From Halothermothrix orenii H 168 (GTDB lineage Bacteria > Bacillota > Halanaerobiia > Halanaerobiales > Halothermotrichaceae), in contig NC_011899.1 in NCBI RefSeq assembly GCF_000020485.1, positions 1,582,501 to 1,646,500 of the forward strand: a stretch of DNA of 64,000 nt, written 5' to 3'. This document shows, piece after piece, positions 31,121 to 49,790 of this stretch. The translations under genes were made by a program, and so were the position numbers. The notes under the pieces were generated by a model. That model was given only the letters and a program-made list of their open reading frames with translations, ran no database searches and was not told the DNA's origin. Numbering within the stretch: the first letter of the stretch is position 1; each line of letters starts with the position of its first letter.

Positions 31121-31137
31121 AAATATATTTCATCTCC

Positions 31138-32274
31138 TTACTCAAAATACCCGTAGCCAACCATGGTTTTAGCACCAACACCTAAATTTCTCAAAGCTTC
31201 TTTGAGCAAATTAACAGTCAGGTTCAAATACTCACAACTGTTATCTCTTTTTCCCGCACACTCCTTACATTTAACAGCAACACTAAACCTGAACATTTGA
31301 TTATCCAATACCAGGAAGGGAATAGGTACTGGACTTTGAGTGTCATCAGGAGGATTATTGACTTTCTTCGTCGTTTCCATTTCCTGATAATATTCTTTAA
31401 AATGAGGAGTCATGATATCGATATCTATATTTATTCTGCCCTCCGGATAAGCATCAAAAAAGACCGCATTACCACTCTGACTTTTCGTTCCAAAAATCCA
31501 GCGATATTTTTCAAATTGATTCATCTGGTATTCATCCAGTGTTTTTACATCTATTTTTTCCTCTCCGAGTAAAGATTCTATTTTTTCATAACTTTTAACA
31601 TCTAATTCTTCCCTCAATTTTTCAACAGCCCAGGCCCTGGTCAGTCCTTTCAATGAACTTCCAGGTATATATGGTATTCCATAAATATGATGTAACATTA
31701 AATTGGTTTCCAGTACATTTGCTCCCCCTAAACCAACAACCATTCTATAATCATTAGTCATTACAAAATTATCAACACTATATCCTATTGAGGACAAATA
31801 GCTGATTTGTTTTTCCTGCCTGCTTAAGAAGCTTTTTATTTCTTTAGTTGAAAAAAACTGATTTTGATTTTTAGTTAGGTTTGCAAGTATGTCTTTTTTA
31901 TCACTTTCATCGAAGTCATATATATAATAATTAGTCTGAAGGTAGAAGTTTTCAATAGCAGTCTTTTTAATAATTTTATTAGTATCATTTGGTATGTAAG
32001 ATTTATATTTGAAACTAAGAGCTATTTTCCCATCTTTTTCAATATTAATTATCTTTACTCTAATTTGATCCCCTTCGTTGATATAATTTGTTATATCCTT
32101 AACATATTTATCAGCAATATTTGATATATAAATCAACCCATCAATTTTCTTTTTTTCATCAAGTCGCACAAAGGCACCATAAGGTTTTATCCTTGTTACT
32201 CTTCCTTCAACAATATCCCCTTCTTTAAAATTATGCCTGCTGATCTTTCTTCTCCCCCTTTCCTTCATCTTCAA
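31138..32274 (-). CDS. cmr6: Cmr6 with an N-terminal S1 RNA-binding domain
   Basis: Residues about 15-90 are a typical S1/OB fold (EGDIVEGRVTRIKPYGAFV, GLIYISNIADKYVKDI, VKIINIEKDGKIALSFK). The rest is Cmr6, the RAMP subunit at the 3' end of the Cmr complex: VGLGGANVLETNLMLHH, IPYIPGSSLKGLTRAWA, and the glycine loop LGVGAKTMVGYGYFE at the end. The S1 part is an addition I do not know as standard for Cmr6. The gene overlaps cmr5 by about 40 bases. Starts at 32274 or 32268 are both possible; neither has a strong ribosome site. Confidence 0.85.
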   Translation of the reverse strand: MKMKERGRRKISRHNFKEGDIVEGRVTRIKPYGAFVRLDEKKKIDGLIYISNIADKYVKDITNYINEGDQIRVKIINIEKDGKIALSFKYKSYIPNDTNKIIKKTAIENFYLQTNYYIYDFDESDKKDILANLTKNQNQFFSTKEIKSFLSRQEKQISYLSSIGYSVDNFVMTNDYRMVVGLGGANVLETNLMLHHIYGIPYIPGSSLKGLTRAWAVEKLREELDVKSYEKIESLLGEEKIDVKTLDEYQMNQFEKYRWIFGTKSQSGNAVFFDAYPEGRINIDIDIMTPHFKEYYQEMETTKKVNNPPDDTQSPVPIPFLVLDNQMFRFSVAVKCKECAGKRDNSCEYLNLTVNLLKEALRNLGVGAKTMVGYGYFE

Positions 32275-32644
32275 TCATTCCATCAACAAATCTTCTCCAC
32301 CAGTTTAATAAAGCAAGGGTTTCTTTAGTTAACTGCCTATAATTTTTGCTATCAGTTGAAACAACTTCTTCTAATAGAGTATCTTTATTTATTAATTCTT
32401 TTTCTTCTTTCAACCAGTATTCCAACTGTTTATATATCTTCTGATAGGCTTCATCATTGGAATATATAAAGGCAATTGTATTTCCCAGACCATTAGTTTT
32501 GATCAAAGGGGCCAATTTTTTTACATGTGATTTATATTTTTCTTTAAATTTATCACCTTTCACATCTTTTACAAACTCATAAGCCTTTTTAGCTCTTCCA
32601 TTTTCAATTTCTTTCCTTTTTACCTGTTCATCTTTTTTACCCAT
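32231..32644 (-). CDS. cmr5: Cmr5, small subunit of the type III-B complex
   Basis: About 137 residues, helical and basic. RAKKAYEFVKDV near the start and GLGNTIAFIYS in the middle are the Cmr5 pattern; the C-terminus has LLNWWRRFVDGM. Cmr5 lines the crRNA-target duplex alongside Cmr4. A GTG upstream belongs to the Shine-Dalgarno site AAGGAGTGG; ATG at 32644 is chosen. It overlaps the end of cmr4 by eight bases and the start of cmr6. Confidence 0.88.
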   Translation of the reverse strand: MGKKDEQVKRKEIENGRAKKAYEFVKDVKGDKFKEKYKSHVKKLAPLIKTNGLGNTIAFIYSNDEAYQKIYKQLEYWLKEEKELINKDTLLEEVVSTDSKNYRQLTKETLALLNWWRRFVDGMIEDEGKGEKKDQQA

Positions 32645-33614
32645 TTTTACCACTCCTTACAAGCCTGGTTCTAATGATTCCCCGGCCAATGGTTTCATTT
32701 CCCCCCAGCTGTATTCTTTCTTTTAGTCCTTCTTCAAAAAATTGTATTACATTCTCAGCTTTTTTAAGGTCTTCATTTTCTAAATCTTTTTCTTCTCTTA
32801 AAATATCGGTGGCCAAAACCAGACTGTATAGTACTGTTTCTGGCGGTAAATTCTCTTCATACCAGAGAGCGCCCCCATCTTTATCAACCACTTTAGTTTC
32901 ATTCTTAATTTTGATACGGGGAACTAACTCTGTTGACATACTGACAAAATCCTTGAATTCATCATCATCAATTATTACCAGGTCACTTTCCAATTTGTCC
33001 CTCCAGAAAGTATAATCTTCTGCAAAAATATTATCTCTTATCCAGTTTGTAATTCCCTCTATATTTTGTTTATTAACACTATAGGTATATTCTTCAAGAA
33101 TAATATTTCCATCTATATCAAGACTGGATTTTTCACTGATAATCGCATCCTTTTTAATTTCGGGGGCTTCCCAGTCGACATTAATCCCTGCTACTTCCAG
33201 ATCCCTTTTCAACCTGTTTAAGACCATTGGTGAAGTTATCCAGGCAAAAACGTTTCTAGCTGACTTTACGGGAAACAATAGTATTCTGGCATCTGTAAAA
33301 GCCAGGGCTGAAGCAGATTTATTGCTTTCATCTCCAAAAACAAGGTTTATAGCTTTTTCTAGTTCTTCTTCACCCTCTTTGGCATTTTTAAATGAAAAAC
33401 TTTTAAATACTCCTTTCATTAAAGAATTAACAATGGCTATTTCTGTATCAAAACTTGCCCTCAAGGCACCTTTTAATGTAGAGGCCTGAAACACAGGATA
33501 GTCAGTATATTTTTCCCTTTGAATAGGTAAATCAATAACACCTAAATCACTACCACTCCCTGCATGTACAGAAGTTTCACAGTATAAACCAAGTATTGCA
33601 GTTTCCTTATACAT
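32637..33614 (-). CDS. cmr4: Cmr4, backbone RNase subunit
   Basis: A 325-residue RAMP of the Cas7 group. SVHAGSGSDLGVIDLPIQRE and FQASTLKGALRASF are Cmr4 signatures, and the C-terminal glycine loop is QLGGNETIGRGIIRTR. Cmr4 multimers hold the crRNA and cut target RNA every six bases; the catalytic Asp is usually in the GSGxDLGxxDLP loop, which is intact here (GSGSDLGVIDLP). AGGAGGG lies before the ATG. It starts directly after the cmr3 stop codon. Confidence 0.93.
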   Translation of the reverse strand: MYKETAILGLYCETSVHAGSGSDLGVIDLPIQREKYTDYPVFQASTLKGALRASFDTEIAIVNSLMKGVFKSFSFKNAKEGEEELEKAINLVFGDESNKSASALAFTDARILLFPVKSARNVFAWITSPMVLNRLKRDLEVAGINVDWEAPEIKKDAIISEKSSLDIDGNIILEEYTYSVNKQNIEGITNWIRDNIFAEDYTFWRDKLESDLVIIDDDEFKDFVSMSTELVPRIKIKNETKVVDKDGGALWYEENLPPETVLYSLVLATDILREEKDLENEDLKKAENVIQFFEEGLKERIQLGGNETIGRGIIRTRLVRSGKNG

Positions 33615-34796
33615 CTACTTAATCCCTCCTATAAATGAGATACCAAAACCTTCTTTGCTTTTTAAATCAGAAATAGATTGTCCATGTAATTCATTTATTA
33701 ATTCCTCAATATCAAATTTTTTATCCAGTATCTGGAAATAATAAAGGCTACCTTCAGGTACTACCCTAAAACCTGTTTTTGCTTTACCCCTTTTATTTTT
33801 GTCAGTCTTTTTAGCCATATCCCAGCCACTCACTATTTTATGTTTTCCTACAGCTGCAGTTAATAACTTTACCCTGATACCACTTGCAGGTAATTTGCCT
33901 GTAAAGTCATCAGGATTAATCCATTCAGGTAACCATCCTCTTTTAAAGACAGTCGGAGTAGAAAGATAAATTTTGAACTTTTTGCTTTTTAAAATTCTTT
34001 TTTTAGTTGAAGCATATAGTTCTATTTTGTTACTGACATCTTTAACTTTCCTATACTCTGCTGCCTTTTGCTCACCCCCTAATTTTAATAAACCACTTTC
34101 GGATAGCAGTCCTTTATCTCCAGTTAATTCAAGAAAAAAACTATAAGACTTATCTCTGTTGTTTTTAAATCTCAATACTTCTCTTCGGTACAGCTTTTTT
34201 TCCTTGGCTAATTTTGTTACATTATCTATTTCTATCCCTGTTCGATACTCTTTATCGAAAATATCATTCATTCTATCGAAGACTTTTACTTCTGCATCCT
34301 CAAGTTCATTGTTCAAATAATATTCAAGATCTTTTATTTTAATATAAGCTGGTCCGGGCCACTCCACCTGTTTGCTTACAGGATTAATTAAAAGGTGAGA
34401 AAGAGAGTTATTCATTTTAATCCAGCTTTTTTTTGAAACAAATCTTAAATGTAACAGTCCAGAACTTTTATCCCCTTTTTTCACAACCATATCCTGCGGT
34501 AATGGCAATAAAATATCCTTAAAGACCTTATCTTCCTTAATCAAAGAAAAAAAGTTAATTTTAAGGGAACCTTTAAAATCAGGACTTCCAATTACTTCAG
34601 TTATTTCCCCTGCTTTTCCCTCTAGAAATTCAAAGTATCTTTCGCTATTATCCAGCAACACTCTACTCCGGAAAGCCCCGTAAAAAGTAGAGGGATAGGG
34701 CATATCTATAGTTTCACCTATGGGACTGTCATCAGCATCAAAAGGTTTCCCATTCCTAAAAAATAATACATCCAGCGGACTAACAGTTACCTGCAA
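33615..34796 (-). CDS. cmr3: Cmr3, RAMP subunit binding the crRNA 5' tag
   Basis: About 393 residues of the Cas5 group. VTVSPLDVLFFRNGKPF and MPYPSTFYGAFRSRVLL are Cmr3 signatures, and the C-terminal KEGFGISFIGG is its glycine loop. With Cmr2 it anchors the 5' handle of the crRNA. The longer frame starts at a GTG inside GAGAGGTG; the TTG at 34796, six bases later, lies one base after the cmr2 stop and gives MQVTVSPLDVLFF, the usual N-terminus. Confidence 0.92.
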   Translation of the reverse strand: MQVTVSPLDVLFFRNGKPFDADDSPIGETIDMPYPSTFYGAFRSRVLLDNSERYFEFLEGKAGEITEVIGSPDFKGSLKINFFSLIKEDKVFKDILLPLPQDMVVKKGDKSSGLLHLRFVSKKSWIKMNNSLSHLLINPVSKQVEWPGPAYIKIKDLEYYLNNELEDAEVKVFDRMNDIFDKEYRTGIEIDNVTKLAKEKKLYRREVLRFKNNRDKSYSFFLELTGDKGLLSESGLLKLGGEQKAAEYRKVKDVSNKIELYASTKKRILKSKKFKIYLSTPTVFKRGWLPEWINPDDFTGKLPASGIRVKLLTAAVGKHKIVSGWDMAKKTDKNKRGKAKTGFRVVPEGSLYYFQILDKKFDIEELINELHGQSISDLKSKEGFGISFIGGIK

Positions 34797-34797
34797 G

Positions 34798-36828
34798 TTA
34801 TTCACCTCTCTTACCTATAAAAAATATAATCTCCAGTAAATTAATAAAATTGTAGATATTGTTCGGCTCTTTATTATCCTCAATCCAGTATCTATTTTTA
34901 TAAATCTGCTGTAAGACTTTCAAACTGGCTTCAGTCTGTTTTTGCAGTTTCTTTCTTTTGCTATCTTCTTTTTCCTCATCTTCATCTACAGTAATTTTCC
35001 GTTTCATTAATCTTATTATTTCATCATCCAGAATATCACCAGCCTCTAGACCTTCCAATAACTCCATTTCGTTTTTTAATGTATATATAAAGCTTTGACT
35101 AATATGCTCTTTTTGAATTAAGTTCAGCAGAGGCTTAATCCCTTTTTCAATTATATCTTCTCCATCATCATAAAACCATTTTGAGACCGCTTCCCTTGTT
35201 TCACCGGAGTGTTTAATTAATCCAATGGCAAAGGCATTCTTCTTTCGATTCCCTGAAATAATATGTTTTTTGGCTTTTTTCTCCATTGCCCTTGCATTTT
35301 TAATAACAAAATGAAGGGGTTCTTTATAATGGGCAATACAAATACCCATACTGACACTTGCTTTACTACCCAGGGTTAATATGTCCTCTCCCTTTTCTCG
35401 TATAATTCCATCACTGGCCTTATAATTAACTTGATTATCAAATACATTACCTGAAAAATAACCCCTTAACTCCCTGAGCACTTCAAAAAGATTTTTTAAA
35501 TTGACAAAAGCTACTACATCATCACCACCTGAATAAACCAATTTTCCCCTGCGTCCTTTACCTTCAACAATCCTTTTAACAAACTTTAAAGAATAATTGG
35601 TAAGAGACTTACTAATCAGGTAATGAAATTCTGGAGTCATTTCTCTATGTTTTAACTTCTCACCACTTACCCATTTCCCCATGTCATCTCCATCCATATA
35701 AAGCAAGGCATAATATTTATTTAATTTAAGATTATATTTTTTATTAATCTTTTTAAGTAGCTTTTTTACTTTTATACTTTCCTTAAGTTCATTACCTTCA
35801 ATGTCAAAATATGTTCCTTTTATTTTTAATACCTTTTTTTCCTCCGGAGACTTACTTTTAACATCTCCTACCAGTCCATTAACCAATTCGGGCATTTGGT
35901 AATCCTGGTTACCAAACTCCTTATCCATATAATTCAATAACTGATTTAACTCATCTTTGTCCAGACTGCTAACCAGTTCTTCCTTATAATCGGCTGTGGC
36001 AATATCAATTACTGACGGATAATGAATTTCAATTCCAAATTCTGTTTTTAAATAATCACTGAACTTCCTTTTTAAACCACAGACTCCACAGATTTTCTTC
36101 TCATCTTCAATATTCATGATTCCAGGTTCAAATCCAGTTCTTTCTCCACAGATATAGCATTTAACACCCTTTTCTTCTATATAATTAAATTCCCTAATAT
36201 TTTTACGAGCCCCCATTAATTCTTCAATAATAGATGTTACCAGAGAATAATGCGAAATATCATTTGCTGGTTCCATGCCAGTTAAACTTCTGTATCTTTC
36301 TATTTCTGTTTTTTTGCTCTTTTCCAGAGGTAATAATACCCAGTATATTTCAAGTAGTTCTTCCAGCTGTTTATATATTTTATCTTCCTTACTGATATTG
36401 AAAAGATTAATGGCAATATCCAAAAGTTTATTCTCAACCATTTTTTTGCATTCTTCTAATAATTGTTCTGCTTCATTGTTTTCTAAAATTGCCAGAAAGC
36501 GATTGGGTAAAGTAGGTAGTGTAATCTCTTCATTTCTTAAATCTTTATAAAGAGGCTGATTTTTTAAATAGGGATAAATAATACTGTTTTCACCTTCTTT
36601 GCTTTCTTCCATGATATGTTTTAGTGCCTGCCAGATTAAATATGAGAGCAAATAACTTCCAGCCCAGTATTCTTTAGTTTTCTTAGCCGCAGATATAAAA
36701 GATTGAACCGGTCCTATTGTAAAAATAGCTAATGATTTATTCTTCAAACTTATCTCAGGTATGTAGTCTTCAAAAGTTTTTATCAATTGTTCCCCTGATA
36801 AAGGGTGTTCTTTAAATATCTTTTTCAC
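34798..36828 (-). CDS. cmr2: Cas10/Cmr2 lacking the HD nuclease domain
   Basis: A 676-residue large subunit. The first palm domain starts almost at the N-terminus (FTIGPVQSFISAAKKTKEYW), so the usual HD DNase domain of about 200 residues is absent. A zinc motif is formed by CYICGERTGF and CGVCGLKR (about 220-255). MDGDDMGKWVSG lies in the first palm, and SGGDDVVAFV (about residue 440) carries the GGDD cyclase motif. It should therefore make cyclic oligoadenylate on target RNA but not cut DNA. GTG start behind GAGGTGAG, four bases after cmr1. Confidence 0.93.
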   Translation of the reverse strand: MKKIFKEHPLSGEQLIKTFEDYIPEISLKNKSLAIFTIGPVQSFISAAKKTKEYWAGSYLLSYLIWQALKHIMEESKEGENSIIYPYLKNQPLYKDLRNEEITLPTLPNRFLAILENNEAEQLLEECKKMVENKLLDIAINLFNISKEDKIYKQLEELLEIYWVLLPLEKSKKTEIERYRSLTGMEPANDISHYSLVTSIIEELMGARKNIREFNYIEEKGVKCYICGERTGFEPGIMNIEDEKKICGVCGLKRKFSDYLKTEFGIEIHYPSVIDIATADYKEELVSSLDKDELNQLLNYMDKEFGNQDYQMPELVNGLVGDVKSKSPEEKKVLKIKGTYFDIEGNELKESIKVKKLLKKINKKYNLKLNKYYALLYMDGDDMGKWVSGEKLKHREMTPEFHYLISKSLTNYSLKFVKRIVEGKGRRGKLVYSGGDDVVAFVNLKNLFEVLRELRGYFSGNVFDNQVNYKASDGIIREKGEDILTLGSKASVSMGICIAHYKEPLHFVIKNARAMEKKAKKHIISGNRKKNAFAIGLIKHSGETREAVSKWFYDDGEDIIEKGIKPLLNLIQKEHISQSFIYTLKNEMELLEGLEAGDILDDEIIRLMKRKITVDEDEEKEDSKRKKLQKQTEASLKVLQQIYKNRYWIEDNKEPNNIYNFINLLEIIFFIGKRGE

Positions 36829-36832
36829 AATC

Positions 36833-37699
36833 TCACCTCAATTCATCAATAAATTTTTCTAATACTTCAACATTGCCTTCAATCCCTTCAGGATAAATAG
36901 GTTCTAGTTTCGTAATAAGGGGATAATAATCGTCTTTTATTTTTACTACTGTTACATAAACAGGGGAAGCCATCCTAGTAGGGTTAATGCTTCCCAAAGA
37001 TTTATCCTTTTTTGAAGCCTGTCCAATCTTTTCTAACATTTTTTCAAAATTTGCTTCTGGTTTGCCTATATAAATTTCTTTAATTACAGGATAAGAATAC
37101 CTTTGATTATCAACAACCCTAATATATTCTCCATCCTTAACTTCAACCTGCCTTCCAAAATCCTGTAAAATACCTGCAATTTTTTTTAAAAGTTCTTCTT
37201 TGTTATCAAACTTACAGTTTTTATCCCTTATACTGCCAAATCCTCTTCTAGACCGCTGTCCTACACCACCCAGAAGAAGGGAAAGGGTAAACACATCCTT
37301 AACGTTATCAATTAATTCTTCTTCAAAACTTTTAAATATAAATTCAAGATTAAAAGAAAGACCAGATTTTAATACCTTAATAGGCACAGGGTTTTCATTA
37401 CGTTTTTTTTCATTATGGGGAAGCAAGTAATAATCTTCTAAGTTATTTTTTTTATTAATTAGGTTAATATCTCTAATTCTTATTGCAAATTTTGAAGCAT
37501 TTTTAGTACTTCCAAAAATCTTATTTTCTTTTTTATGTAATTCATTTAGGTCTCTTTCAGCAGTCAACGCCCTAAACCAATATCTCATCATTCCTTTAAT
37601 GCTAGTAATGCTAGCAGGTCTTAACTCCACTTTTCTGTTATCAGACCCTTTACAATATACCGGGGTAACAATTTTTAAATTATAAGTTATATTATACAT
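36833..37699 (-). CDS. cmr1: Cmr1, RAMP subunit
   Basis: A 288-residue RAMP. TPVYCKGSDNRKVELRPASI and IKGMMRYWFRAL at the N-terminus are Cmr1 signatures; LGGVGQRSRRGFGSI is the glycine-rich loop. Cmr1 joins the complex near Cmr6 at the 3' end of the crRNA. GGAGGAGG supports the ATG. First gene of the operon cmr1-2-3-4-5-6-CARF-RelE-csx1-csx20-thioredoxin. Confidence 0.9.
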   Translation of the reverse strand: MYNITYNLKIVTPVYCKGSDNRKVELRPASITSIKGMMRYWFRALTAERDLNELHKKENKIFGSTKNASKFAIRIRDINLINKKNNLEDYYLLPHNEKKRNENPVPIKVLKSGLSFNLEFIFKSFEEELIDNVKDVFTLSLLLGGVGQRSRRGFGSIRDKNCKFDNKEELLKKIAGILQDFGRQVEVKDGEYIRVVDNQRYSYPVIKEIYIGKPEANFEKMLEKIGQASKKDKSLGSINPTRMASPVYVTVVKIKDDYYPLITKLEPIYPEGIEGNVEVLEKFIDELR

Positions 37700-37946: not shown

Positions 37947-38776
<830 letters not shown>

Positions 38777-39210: not shown

Positions 39211-40780
39211 GTTTCAATCCTTCTTATGCTGGATGTATCAATTAATCCCTCCTCAAAATAGGTTATTGCCATATATACCCCTGTGTTTCAATCCTTCTTA
39301 TGCTGGATGTATCAATTAATCTTATATGTTGCAACACTTACATCTCCTTTATTTCAAGGTTTCAATCCTTCTTATGCTGGATGTATCAATTAATCTCAAC
39401 CTGAAAATCCTTTAGAAAGTCCCTTTTAATCGTTTCAATCCTTCTTATGCTGGATGTATCAATTAATCCGCCTACCGGACAATTTACCAGGAAAAAAGAC
39501 CCGCTGTTTCAATCCTTCTTATGCTGGATGTATCAATTAATCCCGATTTATACCGTTTTTCGATATCAGGGTAGTTAGTTTCAATCCTTCTTATGCTGGA
39601 TGTATCAATTAATCCAACCTTTTTCATGACCCCAATTTAACTATTGGGCATTGTTTCAATCCTTCTTATGCTGGATGTATCAATTAATCCTAGATTAACT
39701 ATTGAAAACCACCTTATATCTTCAGAGTTTCAATCCTTCTTATGCTGGATGTATCAATTAATCCATTCGGTAGCTTCTGAATCTTCCCATTTGAGGGGTT
39801 TCAATCCTTCTTATGCTGGATGTATCAATTAATCTGGAGTGGTGGCCGAATTGGCGATGGCGCCGGACTGGTTTCAATCCTTCTTATGCTGGATGTATCA
39901 ATTAATCTGATTACCTAAAGTCAAATCGTAACTAGCTGGTTGGTTTCAATCCTTCTTATGCTGGATGTATCAATTAATCCAATAAGGGGTGATTGTTTTG
40001 GCCCACTTACAAAAAAGTTTCAATCCTTCTTATGCTGGATGTATCAATTAATCTATTTGTGATTTGTTTGATAGTCATCAACCTATCATGTTTCAATCCT
40101 TCTTATGCTGGATGTATCAATTAATCTCTGAAAGCAGGTACTTATGTTGAGCCTATTCGTGGGTTTCAATCCTTCTTATGCTGGATGTATCAATTAATCC
40201 TGGAAAGAATGTAAAACTAGGGGAAAAAGCTATCAGTTTCAATCCTTCTTATGCTGGATGTATCAATTAATCCTAACACTAGCATTATAAGGCGGATCAG
40301 TCAACACGTTTCAATCCTTCTTATGCTGGATGTATCAATTAATCTTAGCATAGAACTCCTCCAATCTCGATAACCAGTCTCGTTTCAATCCTTCTTATGC
40401 TGGATGTATCAATTAATCCTAAAACCGGCAGAAGAAAAAGAAAATATAAAAATAGTTTCAATCCTTCTTATGCTGGATGTATCAATTAATCGCATAGCAC
40501 AATTATTTTAGAAGGGTGATGTTTTTGAGGTTTCAATCCTTCTTATGCTGGATGTATCAATTAATTTAATATTAACTTTCCAATTATCAGGTTTGCTTAA
40601 GTTTCAATCCTTCTTATGCTGGATGTATCAATTAATCTTCTGTTGAAGCATCTGTTATGTTTGGCGATTCATGTTTCAATCCTTCTTATGCTGGATGTAT
40701 CAATTAATCCCAATGATCTTTGCCAAATCCTCTTGAGAATAATGTTTCAATCCTTCTTATGCTGGATGTATCAATTAATC
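39211..40780 (-). CRISPR. CRISPR array, 22 repeats of 37 bp and 21 spacers
   Basis: Repeats start on the plus strand with GTTTCAATCCTTCTTATGCT and end with ATCAATTAATC, at 39211, 39285, 39359, 39432, 39506, 39578, 39653, 39727, 39798, 39871, 39943, 40017, 40090, 40163, 40236, 40308, 40382, 40455, 40530, 40601, 40673 and 40744. Spacers are 34-38 bases. The minus-strand repeat ends in ATTGAAAC, the usual 5' tag of type I-B and III crRNAs, so transcription runs leftward from a leader at 40781-40978. All repeats are identical except the one at 40530, whose last base is T. The far-end repeat (39211) is not degenerate. Confidence 0.98.
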
Positions 40781-40978: not shown

Positions 40979-41665
40979 TTAGATTATTTTTTCACGCCTC
41001 AAGGTACCAAAACCTCTGCTGGTAGACTTCCCTAAACCAATATATTCTGGAATAAATACATTCGAATAAAACTCACCTACAAAACCTATCATCGTTTGAT
41101 TTTTAAAATTCACAGGAATTTCTCTCAGTTTGGGAACTGTAATAATACTTTCTTCTATCCACCAACCTACTCCTTTAGCAAAGCTTAAAATATTACCAGT
41201 AATTATTTTTTTTAAAAATTTTACTTTTTCATCCTTAGTACCTCCTTCTATTCTAGTTTTATATATGTTATAGTTCTTTTGACTCAATCCTAACCAGGGT
41301 GATATAAAGCTATATTTATATGGTGGCATATCATATTTATTATTTACCTTTAACTCTATTGAATCAACCTTTAATTTTCCAGAAGGATTCAGGAACTTTT
41401 TATCACCCAGTACAATTTTATCTATAGATAAAAAATGTTCAATAATTAAATCTCCACCACTACCTAATCCAATAATAACAGGTTTATTATTAATGATCTT
41501 ATATTGAATTAACGGGTATTTATATCTTAAGCCCCCGTCCTTTTTATGTTGATGAAATAGTACTTCTTCAAATTCGTGTGCAAAATAACCCCTTAGTTTA
41601 TGACCATAACTTAAGGGCAGATCTTCCTCCAGATCATATGTTAATTGAACAACCTTTAACTCCAA
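40979..41665 (-). CDS. cas6: Cas6 crRNA-processing endonuclease
   Basis: A 228-residue RAMP that cuts the array transcript inside each repeat to leave an 8-base 5' tag. HKLRGYFAHEF at the N-terminus and the terminal glycine loop YIGLGKSTSRGFGTLRR are typical. No obvious single catalytic His is conserved, as is common; H22, in LSYGHKLRG, is a candidate. TTG start behind CAGGAG. It is the last cas gene before the leader and the only Cas6 in view, so it probably serves both the type I-B and type III-B complexes. Confidence 0.85.
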   Translation of the reverse strand: MELKVVQLTYDLEEDLPLSYGHKLRGYFAHEFEEVLFHQHKKDGGLRYKYPLIQYKIINNKPVIIGLGSGGDLIIEHFLSIDKIVLGDKKFLNPSGKLKVDSIELKVNNKYDMPPYKYSFISPWLGLSQKNYNIYKTRIEGGTKDEKVKFLKKIITGNILSFAKGVGWWIEESIITVPKLREIPVNFKNQTMIGFVGEFYSNVFIPEYIGLGKSTSRGFGTLRREKII

Positions 41666-41687: not shown

Positions 41688-42284
41688 TTATTTTATACAA
41701 ATATTTCTATAAGTACAGTCAAAACACCTTCTTTTGTATTTAGTTCTATCTGGATAATACCCTTTCTGGATAATTGATATTATTTCTTTCATTATTTTCC
41801 CAACATTACTGTATATTTTTGTATCCAGTTTAATTTCTTTCAATAGGTTCTTACTCCTGATGTATACAATATAGGCCCGGTTAACTTCAATATTATAAAT
41901 ATCAGCAATCATTAACCCATACATGGCGGCCTGATATTTATGTGTGAGAAAAGTCCTCTTTTTATATTTTGCGTATTTATAATCCAACGGTGCTGCTGTA
42001 CCATCTTCCAGGAATAAAATCTCATCAACTATCCCATGTATATTATGTTTTTTTGAGTACATCTTTTTATCCAATATTTTCTTTTTAACCCCTATCTTTT
42101 TTCGAAGATATTTTTTATTAATCTTAAGTTTTCTTTTGTGCATATCACGACCCATCATAACCTTAAACCGATTTTTTTCATGTTGTGGAATTTTTAAATA
42201 TGACATATAATATATAAACCGGGGGCAGTATAAATACTCCATAACCTCTGAAGGAGTTAAACTAATGTTACTGACTTTTACCAT
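41688..42284 (-). CDS. cas4: Cas4 exonuclease
   Basis: About 198 residues, RecB-like, with an iron-sulphur cluster. CPRFIYYM near the start and CFDCTYRNICIK at the end supply the four Cys. The nuclease core is GIVDEILFLEDGTAAPLDYK followed by HKYQAAMYGL (the QxxxY motif). Cas4 trims prespacers and helps select PAM. A GTG upstream is part of the ribosome site; ATG at 42284 is preferred, nine bases after the cas2 stop. Confidence 0.92.
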   Translation of the reverse strand: MVKVSNISLTPSEVMEYLYCPRFIYYMSYLKIPQHEKNRFKVMMGRDMHKRKLKINKKYLRKKIGVKKKILDKKMYSKKHNIHGIVDEILFLEDGTAAPLDYKYAKYKKRTFLTHKYQAAMYGLMIADIYNIEVNRAYIVYIRSKNLLKEIKLDTKIYSNVGKIMKEIISIIQKGYYPDRTKYKRRCFDCTYRNICIK

Positions 42285-42293
42285 CCCACTCAC

Positions 42294-42584
42294 CTACATA
42301 AAAAAACTATTCAATTTATCATTAACCATGGCTTTATCAAAAGCCTGTCCAATAATTTCTACTTTTTTAAAATCTTCCTGACACATTGGGAAGGCATAGA
42401 CAGAGTCATTTTCAGGGTCAATCAACTCTTCTGCATATACCAGTAGTTCATCCAGAAGATTAGGTTCAATATCCCCCAGGAATACCGATTTTTGTACCCT
42501 GTATAAACCCTGTTCAATGGCCTTATCTGCTATTTTCTTGCGTGGCTTATCTTCAACAATATCATAAATAAACCAAACCAACAT
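42294..42584 (-). CDS. cas2: Cas2 adaptation protein
   Basis: A 96-residue ferredoxin-fold protein. WFIYDIVEDKPRKKIADKAI carries the conserved Asp of the first strand, and GLYRVQKSVFLGD follows as in all Cas2. It forms the integrase complex with Cas1. The ATG lies four bases after the cas1 stop. Confidence 0.95.
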   Translation of the reverse strand: MLVWFIYDIVEDKPRKKIADKAIEQGLYRVQKSVFLGDIEPNLLDELLVYAEELIDPENDSVYAFPMCQEDFKKVEIIGQAFDKAMVNDKLNSFFM

Positions 42585-42588
42585 ATTA

Positions 42589-43566
42589 TCAACCTTCCTC
42601 TATAATTCTGTTGGCCAGGGAGTGACAATCATACTGAATCGTATTATTAATTTTTATCTCTCTCCCCTTATATCTAATTTTTTTATCAAAATAATCATTT
42701 AATTCTGTAAGAAGCAATTTTTTTCCTTCATCGTTAAGAGTTAATCCTCCCTGAATTTTATCAAAATGTAACTTACGGATTTTTTTTCTACTAAATAACT
42801 TCATTACTACTCTGTCTATATGGTGTCGGTAGGGTTCAATAAAATCAAAGACAAAAGACTTTTTATTATAACCATCAGTATGTAGAATGCCAACATAAGG
42901 ATCTAACCCTGCAATAATTAATGCTTTTTCTACTTTGCCATATAATACACCATAACCATAATTCAGCAAACAATTAAATTCATCCTCAGCAGGTCTGAAA
43001 CTCCTGCCATTAAACTTATATCTATCTGGCAAAAGAAAACTTAAGCTGGCAAAATACTTCCTGGATATATTACCTTCATACCCCATTATAGTATTTCTTA
43101 CATCTTCAATATACCCTGTAACTTTTTCTAATTTATTACGCAATTCACAGATCTCTTTTATCTTCTTATTTATATATTTCTCTTTTGATTTAGAACGTTT
43201 TATAGCCAGATCATGTAAATGGTTAATCATATTATCTATTTTATCAAGCATAAATTCTTTTACCAGTTCAGTACCTTCTTCACTTTCTGCCAGCTCAAGC
43301 TGTTTCCTTCTAATATAAGTAGTACTACCAAGTTTAGGGTGCCAGACTTTTCCTAACGAACAACCAAACTCATCCAGAAACTGTATTTCAATATTATTTT
43401 CCAGGGCCAGTTTAACTGCATCTGTACTGATGGCAGCACCTGTGGTAATTAATATTGAACTAACCTTTTTAGCAGAAACCCTCTTTTTATCCTCTTCAGT
43501 CTTTATTTCAAACGATTTTTGTTTTACATGAAGGTAACTACCGTATGTGTTGATAACCAACTGCAT
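42589..43566 (-). CDS. cas1: Cas1 integrase
   Basis: About 325 residues, type I-B form. The metal-binding residues are Glu in IMGYEGNISRKYF, His in GILHTDGYNKKS and Asp in FVFDFIEPYRHHID. It inserts new spacers at the leader end. The frame opens with TTG-ATG; GAGGTG lies eight bases before the ATG at 43566, which is chosen. Follows cas3 after 31 bases. Confidence 0.96.
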   Translation of the reverse strand: MQLVINTYGSYLHVKQKSFEIKTEEDKKRVSAKKVSSILITTGAAISTDAVKLALENNIEIQFLDEFGCSLGKVWHPKLGSTTYIRRKQLELAESEEGTELVKEFMLDKIDNMINHLHDLAIKRSKSKEKYINKKIKEICELRNKLEKVTGYIEDVRNTIMGYEGNISRKYFASLSFLLPDRYKFNGRSFRPAEDEFNCLLNYGYGVLYGKVEKALIIAGLDPYVGILHTDGYNKKSFVFDFIEPYRHHIDRVVMKLFSRKKIRKLHFDKIQGGLTLNDEGKKLLLTELNDYFDKKIRYKGREIKINNTIQYDCHSLANRIIEEG

Positions 43567-43597
43567 CAATCTATCACCTCAAACTAAACCATATATA

Positions 43598-46066
43598 TTA
43601 AGCAAACATAGTTGATTCAAACTTTTTTTTAGGTTCTTTAAGAAAACCAATATTATCATCATACAAATACTTTTTCTGATCCTCATAACTGACATACTTG
43701 ATAAATCTAAATTTCTTTATTATATAGTGTTTTTCGTATTCTTTTAATTGGTTAGTATAAACATTAATTTTATATAGGGCTAATTCTTTGTTTAATATTT
43801 CTTTTTTGGCAATTAACCTATTTAATTTTTTTCTATCATTATAACTCAACTTAATTTCTTCATATATTTCTTTAAGTTCTTCTATCTTATTTTCTATATC
43901 TTTATTTTTACAAATAATTATGTTATCTTTACCTCCCTGTTCTTTTACTATTTTAAATTTTGAAATAGGATCCTGGTCAACTTTTTCTTTACTATAATTT
44001 AAATTACAAATTGCATTCATTAATTTATCACTTTGCCTTAAATAACTTTCCCTAATTCTCGAAAAATAATTTTTACTCATATCAATAAATGACTTTTTCT
44101 CACTTAAAACTTCTCTGCATATATCAAGTAATACTTTATCATATACTTTATTACAGTACATTTCTTCCTTATCATTTTTTAACATAATGATATTTACTTT
44201 GCCTTTTTGTGGCAACTCCCCACTCCTATTACAACGACCAGCAACCTGTATAATAGAATCTAATGGTGCAAAATCCCTGAAAACCTCTTCAAAACTCAGA
44301 TCAACTCCTGCTTCTATTAATTGAGTTGATACAACTATTATTTTTTCCCCTTTATCAATCTTCATATTAATTTCATCTATTTTTTCAAGTCTATCAATTG
44401 GTGTTAGATTAGTAGTTAATGAGTAAACGTGATAGCCTTTTGAAGTAAATAACTCATCGACATATTTATATATATCTAATGCAGAACTAATAGTATTACA
44501 GACTATTAAACCGGTTTTACTGTTAAAATTTAATTCAAGATATCCCAAAAAATCTTCAATATTATAAGGATTTAGTTTATCTATAATTTTAAGATTAACT
44601 CTATCAAATACGTTCATTTCATTATACTTCTTTTCATTTACCAGATTAACAACGTCATTTCCATAAATTATTTCAGGTTGTGTAGCTGTCATAAGTAAAA
44701 TATGAGTATTAAAATTTTTGCCAAGAATTTTTAATACTTTTCCAACTACATGATAATATTCTACAGGAATATTTTGGACTTCATCCAGTATAACTACTGA
44801 GTTAACGATATTATGAAACTTTTTTAAGTAACTATTTTTATTTCCAATAATGCTTTCCAGTAATTGCACAAAAGTTGTAACAATATTACCAGATTCCCAT
44901 GATTCTAATAATAATCTGTCATCAAGGTATTTCTCTAAATCTCTACTTATCCTGCTGTCTTTTTCTAAGTCAATATTTTTTTTAAGTTCAAGAGGTGTGA
45001 GATAATGATGTTTTAATAAATACTTTGAAGGATTTTTTTTGTAAACTTCTTTAAGGTTAAAATTAATTATTTTCTCGAACTCATTAAAATTTTGGTCAAT
45101 AATAGATGTATACGGTAGACAATAAATAATTCTTTTCCCGTAAGCGGAAAGTTCCCTTAATTTGTTTGCAAATGCAAATGATGCAAATGTCTTACCAATA
45201 CCTGTAGGAGCAGTTAAACTATATAAAAAATTTGTATCTTTTATTTGTGAATGATTTGTAACATCTTGAAAAAAACTATTTCTTGCTTTATTAATAGGTA
45301 ATCCAGGATTATATTTTTTTGGTTGCTCTTTCCTTTTTTTATTAATATACTTTTGCACATTTATATATTCTTCTGTCGCTCCTTTAAAATAATCATTATT
45401 TAAACTCGCAGCATCCTTTTTGTCAGTATCAATTAATATTGAATAAAGCAAATTAGTTACTAAAAATAATTCAATAGCCTTGTCTTCATTCTTATACTTG
45501 TCTTCAATAACTATTTCTCTAAATAATTCAGAAATATCATCTACTTCCACAACAAATTCTTCTAATTCACTAAATAACTCTTCAAAGCAATATTCTGTAT
45601 CTTTTAATATATTATTATCATAAATATTTTTTACATGATTATATGTATTTTGTTTTATATCATTAATTTGCATTTTTATATGATAGAAAGTCTCACCACA
45701 ATCTTCTACAGGGGATTCCAGGTTCCCATGATGTCTTTTAACAACCATATAACCTATCATTGCCATTAACCTGGTGTATTTTTTCTTGAGTAAAATATAG
45801 GCCAATATCGCTGATATTAAACCATGGTGAGAAAAAATATTTTCCTCACCATGGACTAAATAATTTTGAAAAAAAGTAGTTGACTTTCCAAAATCATGGA
45901 CTGCTCCAATTAAAAAAGCTATATCAGTAAGTTCATCTTTGGATATTATAGATAAGTCTAACCGCTTGTTTAAGATAATATTTTTACAGCCTTCTGCTAC
46001 ATTTTTCAAATGAACTTCTAACTCTCTTTTTTTATTTGAAGAATAGTGTGAAAATAATTTTTCCAA
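43598..46066 (-). CDS. cas3: Cas3 helicase-nuclease
   Basis: About 822 residues. The N-terminal HD nuclease has LIGAVHDFGKSTTFFQ (about residue 55) and KRHHGNLESP. The SF2 helicase has Walker A TAPTGIGKTFASF, motif II VILDEVQNIP (DEVQ), motif III LLMTATQP and motif VI QVAGRCNRSGE. It degrades DNA bound by Cascade. GTG at 46075 is part of the ribosome site GAGGTG and overlaps the cas5 stop; TTG at 46066 is better placed. Confidence 0.95.
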   Translation of the reverse strand: MEKLFSHYSSNKKRELEVHLKNVAEGCKNIILNKRLDLSIISKDELTDIAFLIGAVHDFGKSTTFFQNYLVHGEENIFSHHGLISAILAYILLKKKYTRLMAMIGYMVVKRHHGNLESPVEDCGETFYHIKMQINDIKQNTYNHVKNIYDNNILKDTEYCFEELFSELEEFVVEVDDISELFREIVIEDKYKNEDKAIELFLVTNLLYSILIDTDKKDAASLNNDYFKGATEEYINVQKYINKKRKEQPKKYNPGLPINKARNSFFQDVTNHSQIKDTNFLYSLTAPTGIGKTFASFAFANKLRELSAYGKRIIYCLPYTSIIDQNFNEFEKIINFNLKEVYKKNPSKYLLKHHYLTPLELKKNIDLEKDSRISRDLEKYLDDRLLLESWESGNIVTTFVQLLESIIGNKNSYLKKFHNIVNSVVILDEVQNIPVEYYHVVGKVLKILGKNFNTHILLMTATQPEIIYGNDVVNLVNEKKYNEMNVFDRVNLKIIDKLNPYNIEDFLGYLELNFNSKTGLIVCNTISSALDIYKYVDELFTSKGYHVYSLTTNLTPIDRLEKIDEINMKIDKGEKIIVVSTQLIEAGVDLSFEEVFRDFAPLDSIIQVAGRCNRSGELPQKGKVNIIMLKNDKEEMYCNKVYDKVLLDICREVLSEKKSFIDMSKNYFSRIRESYLRQSDKLMNAICNLNYSKEKVDQDPISKFKIVKEQGGKDNIIICKNKDIENKIEELKEIYEEIKLSYNDRKKLNRLIAKKEILNKELALYKINVYTNQLKEYEKHYIIKKFRFIKYVSYEDQKKYLYDDNIGFLKEPKKKFESTMFA

Positions 46067-46071
46067 ACCAG

Positions 46072-46788
46072 TCACCTCACTGGAGTATAAAAACTTATAT
46101 AATCATCTTTTAATTTTATTACTTCATAAAAAGACCCATTTATATTTGCTCCATTTTCTTCATAACAAACTTCAACAACCTTTTCTGGTTCTCGACCAGA
46201 GTTTACTTTTTTAAAGGATACTGGCATGTTGTCCAGAATTAGGTTATATGTTGTAGTATCATTTAATTTTTTTATATTATCCTTATATGTTAATGTTTTT
46301 AAATTCCCAGTATAATCTTTAATAATATCAATGTCCTCTATTAAATCATCAAATTCAGCAGTAGCTCTAAACTGCCTCTGCCCCAGATATATACCATATC
46401 CATATATCTTATTCTTTATTTTTGTTGCTAATTCTTTTAATAAAGATTCGTCCTGATGTGTAAAAAATACTTTATAAGATAACATATTATTTGCTGGCAG
46501 TAACAATTGCAATCTTACCTGTGTATGACCACCATCTTCTTTTAAATAATTCATACATTCAAAATGAGTATAACTTTCACTTTCTATTTTTACTCCAAAT
46601 TTAGCCTGCTGAGGTGATAATAATTCATAATAACTATCCCGGGGTTTTTCTAAAATAGAAGCAACTATCCCCATTAAAACCGTTCGGGGAGGAATTTTAT
46701 AAGTTAAAGAACTTTTATTGCTGTAGTATTTTTTGAAATGTGCAATTTTACCCTTTATTTTAAAAACCAGGACTTGGTTAATGTCCAT
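46072..46788 (-). CDS. cas5: Cas5b subunit of the type I-B Cascade
   Basis: A 238-residue RAMP. FKIKGKIAHFKKYYSNKSSL and YKIPPRTVLMGIVASIL are the Cas5 N-terminal signature (Csh family). It binds the crRNA 5' tag in Cascade. TAGGAG supports the ATG. Lies between cas7 and cas3. Confidence 0.92.
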   Translation of the reverse strand: MDINQVLVFKIKGKIAHFKKYYSNKSSLTYKIPPRTVLMGIVASILEKPRDSYYELLSPQQAKFGVKIESESYTHFECMNYLKEDGGHTQVRLQLLLPANNMLSYKVFFTHQDESLLKELATKIKNKIYGYGIYLGQRQFRATAEFDDLIEDIDIIKDYTGNLKTLTYKDNIKKLNDTTTYNLILDNMPVSFKKVNSGREPEKVVEVCYEENGANINGSFYEVIKLKDDYISFYTPVR

Positions 46789-46804
46789 AATAACAACTCC
46801 TACC

Positions 46805-47713
46805 CTAATAATTTAATTCATTTACAGGGAACGTATTTAATAACTTTTCAAAGCCATTATCTTTAACTGTTAGTTTATTATCTTTCCAGTAATTAATTTT
46901 TTTAATTTTGCTTTTAATGGTTGATAAATATTCCAGCAGTTCATCTATAACTAATTCAATATTATTAATATCTCTAACATCTTCTTCACGGACATTATAA
47001 TCAAGAGAAATGTATTCTCTCAAATCGTTTAATGCTGTTTCATTATCATTCATTTCAACTCTCAGATATAGCCTTGGAGTTTGTCCAATTTTAGAACGGG
47101 TTCTATTCAATGGTATTGATTTTATTATAGCTTCATCAAGCAATTTAACATCGTTTTCTGTAAGTTTTGTATCTTTGGCAGCAAGACCATTGATACCACC
47201 GCTAAAAGCTATAAAAGAATATTTTACTCTATAGTCTTTACCAACACCTTCCCCAGAACTAAAACTAGAAGTGATAGTCTTTGACTCCTGTAATTCTACC
47301 TTATTTAGGGAGTATCCCCAATTAAACTGTACAGGTCCTGTTAAATGAGTATTACCACCAGATGTACCAAGAACTGCTCCAAAATATATTACATCACAAC
47401 ATTCTTCAGCAATTTTAGTAAGTTCCTCATCTGTAACTGGTTTATTTGAAGATGGTTTCCTTCCTAATATTTGATGAACCCGGTTTTCAGCTTTTTCCGC
47501 CTCTTCACTCACAAATAAATTTTTTCCCTTAACTTTCTGCAAATAATCCCTGATATACCTTTTTAATCTTACATCGCTAACTAAATTTGTTCCTGTGTCC
47601 CAATCCATCCTTGGTTTGTTTTCATTATCCATATCCCCATTTGGATTAGACCTTTTAGCATCATAAAGAAATAATATCTCTGAATTATTAGGAACTTTTT
47701 GTTTTTCAGTCAT
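46805..47713 (-). CDS. cas7: Cas7 (Csh2-type) backbone of the type I-B Cascade
   Basis: About 302 residues. FLYDAKRSNPNGDMDNENKP and DVRLKRYIRDYL are the DevR/Csh2 signature; GTSGGNTHLTGPVQFNWGYS also fits. It coats the crRNA spacer. The first ATG (47725) abuts the ribosome site AAGGGGG; the ATG at 47713 is better spaced and follows the cas8 stop. Confidence 0.95.
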   Translation of the reverse strand: MTEKQKVPNNSEILFLYDAKRSNPNGDMDNENKPRMDWDTGTNLVSDVRLKRYIRDYLQKVKGKNLFVSEEAEKAENRVHQILGRKPSSNKPVTDEELTKIAEECCDVIYFGAVLGTSGGNTHLTGPVQFNWGYSLNKVELQESKTITSSFSSGEGVGKDYRVKYSFIAFSGGINGLAAKDTKLTENDVKLLDEAIIKSIPLNRTRSKIGQTPRLYLRVEMNDNETALNDLREYISLDYNVREEDVRDINNIELVIDELLEYLSTIKSKIKKINYWKDNKLTVKDNGFEKLLNTFPVNELNY

Positions 47714-47714
47714 T

Positions 47715-49790
47715 TTATTTGTCATCCCCCTTATTATTCTTAGTCTTATAGTATTTATGACCTAAGTACCTACCAAAAGAAATACCAGACAATATATAAA
47801 ATACTACTTCATCTTTATTAAGACTGGAATTTTCAATTCCCTGAATTCGATCAATCATTTGTGAATGTAGTAACTGATTACATGTATATTTATCATGAAT
47901 ATGTAAAATCTCAGTTATGTCGTTAACGAATTTGCTAACTTGTCTCACAGACATTCCATCAAAACTAAGCTTATCAAGAATACTGGCTGATTTATTTTCT
48001 TTTTGTTGTTTTTTTAGTACTTCATTCATTAAAACTCCAAGTAAAAAAAGTCCCTGTCGATATTTGTTATTTTTATAAGTTTCAGCATGAGTACTGAAAA
48101 ACTCTTTTATATCAGAGTTTTCAATAGGAATTGAACTTGTTCCTTCAGACATTTTAAAACCTCCTTTTATTTCAGTAATTTCATTTAACCAGGTTAGTAA
48201 CAGATTCATTTTCATTGGATTATAGATAATTTCTTCAACTCTTTTACTATTCTTAAAATATCTTTTCCTAAGTATAAAATTAAATTGCTTAATTAAGTAG
48301 TTATAATTTACTGACCGGCCCTTTAATATTGAATTCAGTAAACTTAATAATTCTTTTCTGTATAATTTAGGATCAGGGTTTTTATGGGATTCAGTGTTTG
48401 GAAATAGAAGCCAGTAAATATCATTAAATGTTAGTTTATACAAATTAAAATATTTGTTTGGATAAATTAATTTCATATTTAAATTATATAAATTTTTTAT
48501 TATCTGACTAATATGGTTGTAAGCCACATCATTAATACTTTCCGATACAACAAATGCTGCATTTTGCCCCTTTGGTTTAAACCAAAATAAGAAGTTAACC
48601 TTCAAATTACTATTTGCAATACTGTTTATTGCTTCAATATTTTTTTTAAAAGATTTATTATTATCAGATAAAATACTTTTAATTACTTCAATCTCTGTTT
48701 TATACTTTTTACAGTAAGCAATGTTTGTTGGTATAACATAATAGTCAAGTTGGTTAAATAGTTTACCAGAAAAATCTTTTTTTACTTTGGCAATTCCCGC
48801 CATGACTTTTAGATAACAGTCCTGACATATACCAAATGATTTGTACGCATTTTTTCTTTCAAGATTTTCATAAAAATAGGGACTACTTGTAACATAAAAT
48901 TTTGTAGGAATATCTATTTTCCCTGTTATTAATTTATTTTCATTACAAACTCCACATAAAGCATTATCCCTTGCCATTTTGTCTGAATTTGAAGTATCGA
49001 AAAATCTTTGTTGAAGAATATAATATACAACTTCCACATAAGGAGCCTTATATATGCTTTCAAGTATTCTTTTACCATTTATATGTATAGAAAAAATGTT
49101 AAGTTCATTCTTTAAAAAATTTTGCGTTGTTGATATAGCAAGACTTATTTGTTTTTCATAATACTTTTTTATATCCTTTATGGTTAATATTTCTGTGTTA
49201 ACTACTTCCCCGTTTATATATTTATTTATCTCTTTTGCTTTTTCTGCATTACCCCTTTTTTCGTATTTATCAATTTCACTTCTTAAATATTTTACTATTT
49301 CTTTTTTTTGATGTGATACATTTTTATCTACAGATAAATAACTTATCGGTCTTCCAAAATAATCTCTACCAACTACTATGTAGAACTTATTTTTTATCAT
49401 ATTTAACCAATCTAAAAAATCCTCAATATTTTTGATCTTAAGTTTATCAATTTCTTTTTCTATATAGTAAATCAAATGTGGTATTGTTAATAAGTGATAA
49501 TTGTAGTTATCAGTTGTAAAATAAGTTTTACTACTATTTGATGCCTTTAAATCAAATCCAAAAAATTCTTCTCTGTTTTTTTCATATAATTCTTTTCCTA
49601 GTTTAATCTCAATCTCTTCTTTTTCAGTGTCCAGATTTATAATTACTTCTCTATATTTGTCTGCATCTTTATCCCCACTATCTGGTTCATTTGGAATAAT
49701 AGTCTGTGTCTCTAGAAATTTTTGCTTTTTTTCACTATCTGACAATCCTTGTAGTTCTATTTCACCTAGTTCTTTGAATGAGTTAATCAC
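47715..49790 (-). CDS. cas8b: Cas8b (Csh1/TM1802-like) large subunit of Cascade
   Basis: A 691-residue protein. Two CxxC pairs (LCGVCNENK and GICQDCYLKV, about 280-335) form the zinc site usual in this family. The C-terminal part is helical and has YILSGISFGRYLGHKYYK near the end, which fits the fused small-subunit region. It should recognise the PAM. GTG start with AAGGAGGTG correctly placed. First gene of the I-B operon, 161 bases after the WYL regulator. Confidence 0.87.
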   Translation of the reverse strand: MINSFKELGEIELQGLSDSEKKQKFLETQTIIPNEPDSGDKDADKYREVIINLDTEKEEIEIKLGKELYEKNREEFFGFDLKASNSSKTYFTTDNYNYHLLTIPHLIYYIEKEIDKLKIKNIEDFLDWLNMIKNKFYIVVGRDYFGRPISYLSVDKNVSHQKKEIVKYLRSEIDKYEKRGNAEKAKEINKYINGEVVNTEILTIKDIKKYYEKQISLAISTTQNFLKNELNIFSIHINGKRILESIYKAPYVEVVYYILQQRFFDTSNSDKMARDNALCGVCNENKLITGKIDIPTKFYVTSSPYFYENLERKNAYKSFGICQDCYLKVMAGIAKVKKDFSGKLFNQLDYYVIPTNIAYCKKYKTEIEVIKSILSDNNKSFKKNIEAINSIANSNLKVNFLFWFKPKGQNAAFVVSESINDVAYNHISQIIKNLYNLNMKLIYPNKYFNLYKLTFNDIYWLLFPNTESHKNPDPKLYRKELLSLLNSILKGRSVNYNYLIKQFNFILRKRYFKNSKRVEEIIYNPMKMNLLLTWLNEITEIKGGFKMSEGTSSIPIENSDIKEFFSTHAETYKNNKYRQGLFLLGVLMNEVLKKQQKENKSASILDKLSFDGMSVRQVSKFVNDITEILHIHDKYTCNQLLHSQMIDRIQGIENSSLNKDEVVFYILSGISFGRYLGHKYYKTKNNKGDDK

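What the first reader, a model, noticed from the sequence alone, without database searches (positions are those of the whole stretch)
39835..39870. Spacer 9 reads as the 5' half of a tRNA gene
On the plus strand it contains GGAGTGGTGGCCGAATTGGC and then GATGGCGCCGGACTG: a 7-base acceptor strand, TG at positions 8-9, a D arm with GCC/GGC, and the start of an anticodon arm (CCGGA CTG). The last base would be position 34, G, as in tRNA-Tyr(GTA) or tRNA-Ser(GGA). The crRNA is made from the other strand, so it would be complementary to the tRNA transcript itself. It may come from a phage-encoded tRNA, a plasmid tRNA, or the host, in which case it is a self-targeting risk for the Cmr complex.
Basis: partly seen in the sequence, partly recalled or inferred. 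Interest (0 to 1): 0.65.

Follow-up and report, generated by a model that had tools for sequence, protein, structure and literature searches.

The report
CRISPR spacer copied from tRNA gene
One of the 21 CRISPR spacers of the bacterium Halothermothrix orenii is a copy of the first half of a transfer-RNA gene that is not one of the cell's own, most likely taken from an unsampled phage or plasmid that carried its own tRNA; it is a tidy but fairly ordinary immune memory, not a sign of self-attack.

Summary
The window lies in Halothermothrix orenii H 168. Its only array of this repeat has 22 repeats and 21 spacers. Spacer 9 (39835-39870, +) is T plus a 35-nt sequence matching tRNA positions 1-34, with all the conserved D-arm bases. 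A covariance model built from the host's ten class II tRNA 5' halves, without the spacer, scores it 37.2 bits (E 1e-6 per window). That ranks it among the 12 real class II tRNA genes and 15 bits above the next hit. None of 100,000 shuffles reaches its PWM score, and no other spacer resembles a tRNA. The target was not found: no match with up to 3 mismatches in the own genome (outside the array), 38 order genomes or 398 phylum genomes, and none by patterns in GTDB contigs or IMG/VR. The nearest tRNAs are on an Arthrobacter plasmid (30/35), in Halanaerobiales tRNA-Ser(TGA) (28/35) and in phage tRNA-Tyr (26/35). Host tRNAs reach only 24/35 ungapped, so self-targeting is not supported. Best explanation: a spacer acquired from a foreign, probably mobile-element, tRNA-Tyr/Ser gene. 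Its crRNA is antisense to the tRNA, available to type I-B Cascade/Cas3 and possibly the adjacent Cmr complex. Mobile-element origin and function are inferred.

The parts
39835..39870 (+). Spacer 9 (13th from the presumed leader): position -1 and positions 1-34 of a class II tRNA gene, 67% G+C
39798..39834 (-). CRISPR repeat on the low-coordinate side of the spacer
39871..39907 (-). CRISPR repeat on the high-coordinate side; read on the minus strand it ends ...GGATTGAAAC and would give the 5' handle of this crRNA
   Evidence: handle from general knowledge of type I-B/III repeats
39211..40780 (-). CRISPR array, 22 repeats of 37 nt and 21 spacers of 34-38 nt; the only array with this repeat in the genome
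   Evidence: reported at genome 1621710-1623280 in PMC2626281
40781..40978 (-). presumed A+T-rich leader between array and cas6
   Evidence: position and composition only; not tested
40979..41665 (-). cas6b (crRNA-processing ribonuclease)
   Evidence: Pfam Cas6b_N and Cas6b_C
41688..43569 (-). cas4, cas2 and cas1 (adaptation genes; cas1 is 326 aa, with no room for a fused reverse transcriptase)
   Evidence: cas4 and cas1; cas2 by position and size, ORF 42294-42584
43598..49790 (-). cas3, cas5b, cas7/csh2 and cas8b (type I-B interference genes)
   Evidence: cas5b and cas8b score below their curated cut-offs
29906..37699 (-). Cas_APE2256-type CRISPR accessory protein, then cmr6, cmr5, cmr4, cmr3, cmr2/cas10 and cmr1 (type III-B)

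Best explanation
Spacer 9 was cut by the type I-B adaptation machinery (Cas1-Cas2-Cas4) from a tRNA-Tyr or tRNA-Ser gene carried by foreign DNA, most likely a phage or plasmid with its own tRNA gene. The crRNA made from the minus strand is antisense to the tRNA. Cascade/Cas3 would use it to cut the element's DNA at the tRNA gene; the neighbouring Cmr complex could also load it and detect the antisense-matching tRNA precursor. Shown: the spacer is a tRNA 5' half; it is not a copy of a host tRNA; the cas genes and array orientation fit. Inferred: mobile-element origin, acquisition route, expression, and use by either effector.
For: Covariance-model and shuffle tests. A relaxed pattern allowing 3 mismatches over 38 order genomes hits only this spacer plus 24 places that read as tRNA-Ser(TGA)-type or tRNA-Tyr 5' ends, with 0 reversed-pattern control hits (identity of the fetched ones by ARAGORN). 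The best place in 7.3 Gb of plasmid records is a plasmid tRNA aligned in register from position 1, 30/35. Viral contigs do carry class II tRNA-Tyr and tRNA-Ser(GCT) genes with the same CCGGACTG anticodon arm. The complete host genome has no copy with up to 3 mismatches outside the array. A complete type I-B set and a III-B set flank the array. Spacer 9 is the G+C outlier of the array (67% against 24-51%), as tRNA genes of thermophiles are.
Against: No protospacer was found in any collection, so the donor is unknown; an unsampled cellular chromosome is possible. The IMG/VR and GTDB scans needed exact matches at the fixed positions and would miss near matches. No metagenome scan was available. 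No PAM could be derived because no other spacer gave a convincing target. No expression data.
Confidence: 0.78

Rival explanations
1. The spacer comes from the chromosomal tRNA gene of another cell (a salt-lake neighbour), taken up by transformation, conjugation or transduction, as reported for haloarchaea (recalled, not read here).
For: The closest Halanaerobiales chromosomal tRNA, Ser(TGA), matches 28/35 ungapped. Chromosomal tRNAs are far more numerous than viral ones (general knowledge).
Against: No match with up to 3 mismatches in 38 order and 398 phylum genomes, and none by degenerate exact patterns in 84,980 species genomes. The combination of GAATTGGC D loop, GCC/GGC D stem and G34 was not seen in any order tRNA read here.
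Confidence: 0.15
2. Self-targeting: the spacer was taken from, or acts on, one of the host's own tRNA genes and is a risk or a regulatory guide.
For: A gapped RNA duplex with host tRNA-Ser(TGA) is predicted at -50 kcal/mol against -83 for a perfect target, including 8 contiguous pairs near the crRNA 5' end.
Against: No host copy with up to 3 mismatches. Best host tRNAs match 24/35 ungapped. The Ser(TGA) pairing lacks the crRNA's first base, has several mismatches and an asymmetric loop, and the predicted duplex ignores tRNA folding.
Confidence: 0.03
3. The match is a chance resemblance: the spacer derives from a G+C-rich protein gene.
For: Short stretches of the spacer do occur in G+C-rich viral coding DNA, with up to 27/36 matches when seeded on an exact 17-mer.
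Against: Those matches score at most about 13-16 bits on the tRNA PWM, against 28.7 for the spacer; in 0.88 Mb (both strands) of viral DNA only tRNA genes score above 21. No shuffle of 100,000 reaches the spacer. Covariance-model E-value 1e-6.
Confidence: 0.02
4. The spacer matches an attachment site left on a mobile element that integrates into a tRNA gene, or is a guide for a CRISPR-associated transposon aimed at a tRNA gene.
For: tRNA genes are common attachment sites, and type V-K transposon guides mostly target tRNA genes (PMC11406308).
Against: Integration is usually at the 3'-distal part of tRNA genes and the 5' part is considerably rarer (PMC6563490), whereas the spacer ends at position 34. 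The spacer sits inside an ordinary array beside cas1, cas2, cas3 and cas4, and no TniQ was detected in the genome, though that search had no positive control.
Confidence: 0.04

Closest known systems
CRISPR spacers that match tRNA genes (haloarchaeal interspecies spacers and self-targeting cases; recalled from the literature, not found in the held library)
   Same: A spacer identical in kind: a piece of a tRNA gene in an ordinary array
   Different: Here the donor is unidentified and is not the host; the array is shared by type I-B and III-B gene sets
[quoted passage not shown]
   Same: A CRISPR guide that matches a tRNA gene
   Different: Those guides are truncated, set apart from the array and match the host's own attachment site; here none of these holds
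Phage- and plasmid-borne class II tRNA-Tyr/Ser genes (IMG/VR loci L065-L079; Arthrobacter plasmid NZ_CP113344.1)
   Same: Same 5'-half anatomy; CCGGACTG anticodon arm and GCC/GGC D stem both occur among them
   Different: Only 24-30 of 35 positions identical, so none is the target

Membership tests
5' half of a class II (Tyr/Ser/Leu) tRNA gene | Scores with real tRNA genes on a model that excludes it | tested here: met
   37.2 bits, E 1e-6 in the window; 8th of 13 strong genome hits
5' half of a class II (Tyr/Ser/Leu) tRNA gene | Conserved bases U8, A14, R15, G18, G19, A21, U33 and a pairing D stem | tested here: met
   read directly from 39836-39870; aligned to the model
5' half of a class II (Tyr/Ser/Leu) tRNA gene | Long variable arm and 3' half that completes the cloverleaf | not testable with these tools
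   the spacer ends at position 34 and no protospacer was found
Type I-B CRISPR spacer | Lies between identical repeats beside cas6b, cas4, cas2, cas1, cas3, cas5b, cas7/csh2 and cas8b | tested here: met
   (cas5b and cas8b below curated cut-offs but best matches)
Type I-B CRISPR spacer | Protospacer with a PAM | tested here: inconclusive
   no protospacer found in phages, plasmids, IMG/VR, GTDB contigs or relatives
Type III-B (Cmr) guide | Guide antisense to a transcript, and Cmr genes present | tested here: met
   cmr1-6 found; antisense orientation from repeat and cas strand; loading into Cmr not tested
Self-targeting spacer | Near-perfect match elsewhere in the host genome | tested here: not met
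   no match with up to 3 mismatches outside the array
CRISPR-associated transposon guide | Tn7-like genes (TniQ) and a host tRNA attachment site | tested here: not met
   no host tRNA match; TniQ not detected, but without a positive control

The most novel reading that the evidence does not exclude
The guide is antisense to a mobile-element tRNA, so the Cmr complex may sense a phage-encoded tRNA transcript itself, making phage tRNAs, which some phages carry against tRNA-cutting defences, a trigger of type III immunity.
Probability: 0.12. Interest if true: 0.6.

Novelty: new member of a known kind. Interest (0 to 1): 0.3.

Why it matters
If the donor is a phage or plasmid, this old spacer (13th from the presumed leader) records an element of halophilic thermophiles that carried its own tRNA, a virome that the searched collections barely sample. 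It also raises a testable question: can a Cmr complex that loads type I-B crRNAs recognise a structured, abundant tRNA precursor, and how does the cell avoid cross-reaction with its own related tRNA-Ser? Otherwise it is an ordinary spacer.

Tried and rejected
Rfam scan of the 35 nt alone gave nothing: too short to be informative. BLAST of the spacer against phages gave weak protein-gene matches only; the best by E-value (Streptomyces phage phiScoe45) lies in a protein gene. IMG/VR patterns found nothing; the pattern was badly designed (it fixed GG one base off for tRNA-Tyr) and is not evidence. A corrected pattern found 16 viral contigs, so the scan does work. Exact 17- and 18-mers of the spacer gave viral hits in coding DNA; the matches were not tRNA genes. 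Whole-array searches against phages, plasmids and order genomes gave repeats and short chance matches, hence no PAM. Literature searches for tRNA-matching spacers found no held paper on the point. Inverted repeats around the IS3 fragment: none found.

Full report
Where it is. The window is base 1582501-1646500 of a single 2,578,146-base contig. That size, and the CRISPR position 1621710-1623280, match the published genome of Halothermothrix orenii H 168 (PMC2626281). The array at window 39211-40780 has 22 repeats of 37 nt and 21 spacers of 34-38 nt, and the repeat occurs nowhere else in the genome.

Spacer 9, 39835-39870, reads T + GGAGTGGTGGCCGAATTGGCGATGGCGCCGGACTG. Every conserved base of the 5' half of a tRNA is in place: U8, A14, A15, G18, G19, A21, U33, a D stem of three pairs, and an anticodon stem strand CCGGA followed by CTG, so that the last base is G34.

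It is not chance. I built a covariance model from the 5' halves of the host's ten Ser, Leu and Tyr tRNAs, without the spacer. In the window it finds the real tRNA-Leu (41.8 bits) and the spacer (37.2 bits, E 1e-6); the third hit has 12.3 bits. In the whole genome the 13 strong hits are 12 real class II tRNA genes and this spacer, followed by a drop to 22 bits. On a weight matrix scored against the spacer's own G+C-rich composition, none of 100,000 dinucleotide shuffles reaches it (best 13.7 against 28.7), and in 0.88 Mb of viral DNA (both strands) only tRNA genes score above 21. The remaining 20 spacers match tRNAs at 47-57%, spacer 9 at 78%. A relaxed pattern over 38 order genomes hits only this spacer and tRNA-Ser(TGA)-type or tRNA-Tyr starts, with no reversed-pattern hits; I chose the free positions knowing tRNA alignments, so this is supporting rather than independent evidence.

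It is not a host tRNA. The complete genome has no other match with up to 3 mismatches. The closest host tRNAs, Tyr(GTA) and Ser(TGA), match 24/35 ungapped. The predicted gapped duplex of the crRNA with tRNA-Ser(TGA) is -50 kcal/mol against -83 for a perfect target; it misses the first base of the guide, contains an asymmetric loop, and ignores the folding of the tRNA. I regard self-targeting as unlikely, but this is an inference.

The donor was not found. There is no match with up to 3 mismatches in 38 order genomes or 398 phylum genomes, and no match to degenerate exact patterns in 84,980 species genomes or in IMG/VR. The viral scan does work: a class II tRNA pattern found 16 contigs, 14 with tRNA-Tyr genes recognised by ARAGORN at the match, the best matching the spacer at 26/35. 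One of these contigs also carries a tRNA-Ser(GCT) with the same CCGGACTG arm. The best place in the plasmid collection is a tRNA on an Arthrobacter plasmid, 30/35 and in register from position 1. Order tRNA-Ser(TGA) genes match 28/35. The amino acid cannot be decided: G34 and the CCGGACTG arm fit Tyr and Ser, the GAATTGGC D loop resembles Ser(TGA).

How it most likely works. Read on the minus strand, the repeat ends in ATTGAAAC, the usual 5' handle of type I-B and III guides (general knowledge), and the cas operon also runs on the minus strand. The flanking genes form a type I-B set (cas6b, cas4, cas2, cas1, cas3, cas5b, cas7, cas8b) and a type III-B set (cmr1-6 with a CRISPR accessory protein). 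DNA targeting by Cascade/Cas3 does not depend on the strand. Use by Cmr is possible: in Marinomonas a III-B complex uses type I guides when they are antisense to transcripts (PMC5576922). Neither use was tested here.

Why a mobile element. Spacers come mainly from mobile elements (general knowledge), no chromosome searched holds the sequence, and phages and plasmids do carry such tRNAs. An attachment-site remnant is less likely: integrating elements usually recombine with the 3'-distal part of tRNA genes (PMC6563490), while the spacer covers positions -1 to 34. A transposon guide is unlikely, since the spacer lies within a normal array with adaptation genes and no host tRNA matches.

Verdict. 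A real tRNA-derived spacer, foreign to the host; donor and effector use open. A new member of a known kind, of modest interest.

Noticed in passing
window 31138-32274 (-): The cmr6 gene encodes an S1 RNA-binding domain (residues 16-88) fused in front of the Cmr6 RAMP domain. In the class, four relatives match the Cmr6 part, mostly without the S1 part; one (G436, 442-aa ORF, match from residue 77) may have a longer N terminus.
   Followed up: partly
NZ_CP113344.1 about 24616-24704 (L020 3000-3088): An Arthrobacter plasmid carries a tRNA with Ser/Tyr-like 5' half and long variable arm but an anticodon read by ARAGORN as GAT (Ile). The collection lists no RNA genes, so whether it is annotated elsewhere is unknown.
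   Followed up: no
window 38174-38776 (-): An IS3-family transposase ORF lies between the array and the cmr operon; its 200 aa cover only part of the family profile (103-282 of 369), so it looks incomplete or frameshifted.
   Followed up: no
window 29906-31120 (-): A Cas_APE2256-family CRISPR accessory protein sits at the end of the cmr operon, a candidate signalling-linked effector.
   Followed up: no
L077 2457-2534 (IMG/VR contig 3300047469_000311): A viral contig with tRNA-Tyr, tRNA-Ser and tRNA-Asn also has a tRNA that ARAGORN reads with a four-base anticodon (cgaa).
   Followed up: no
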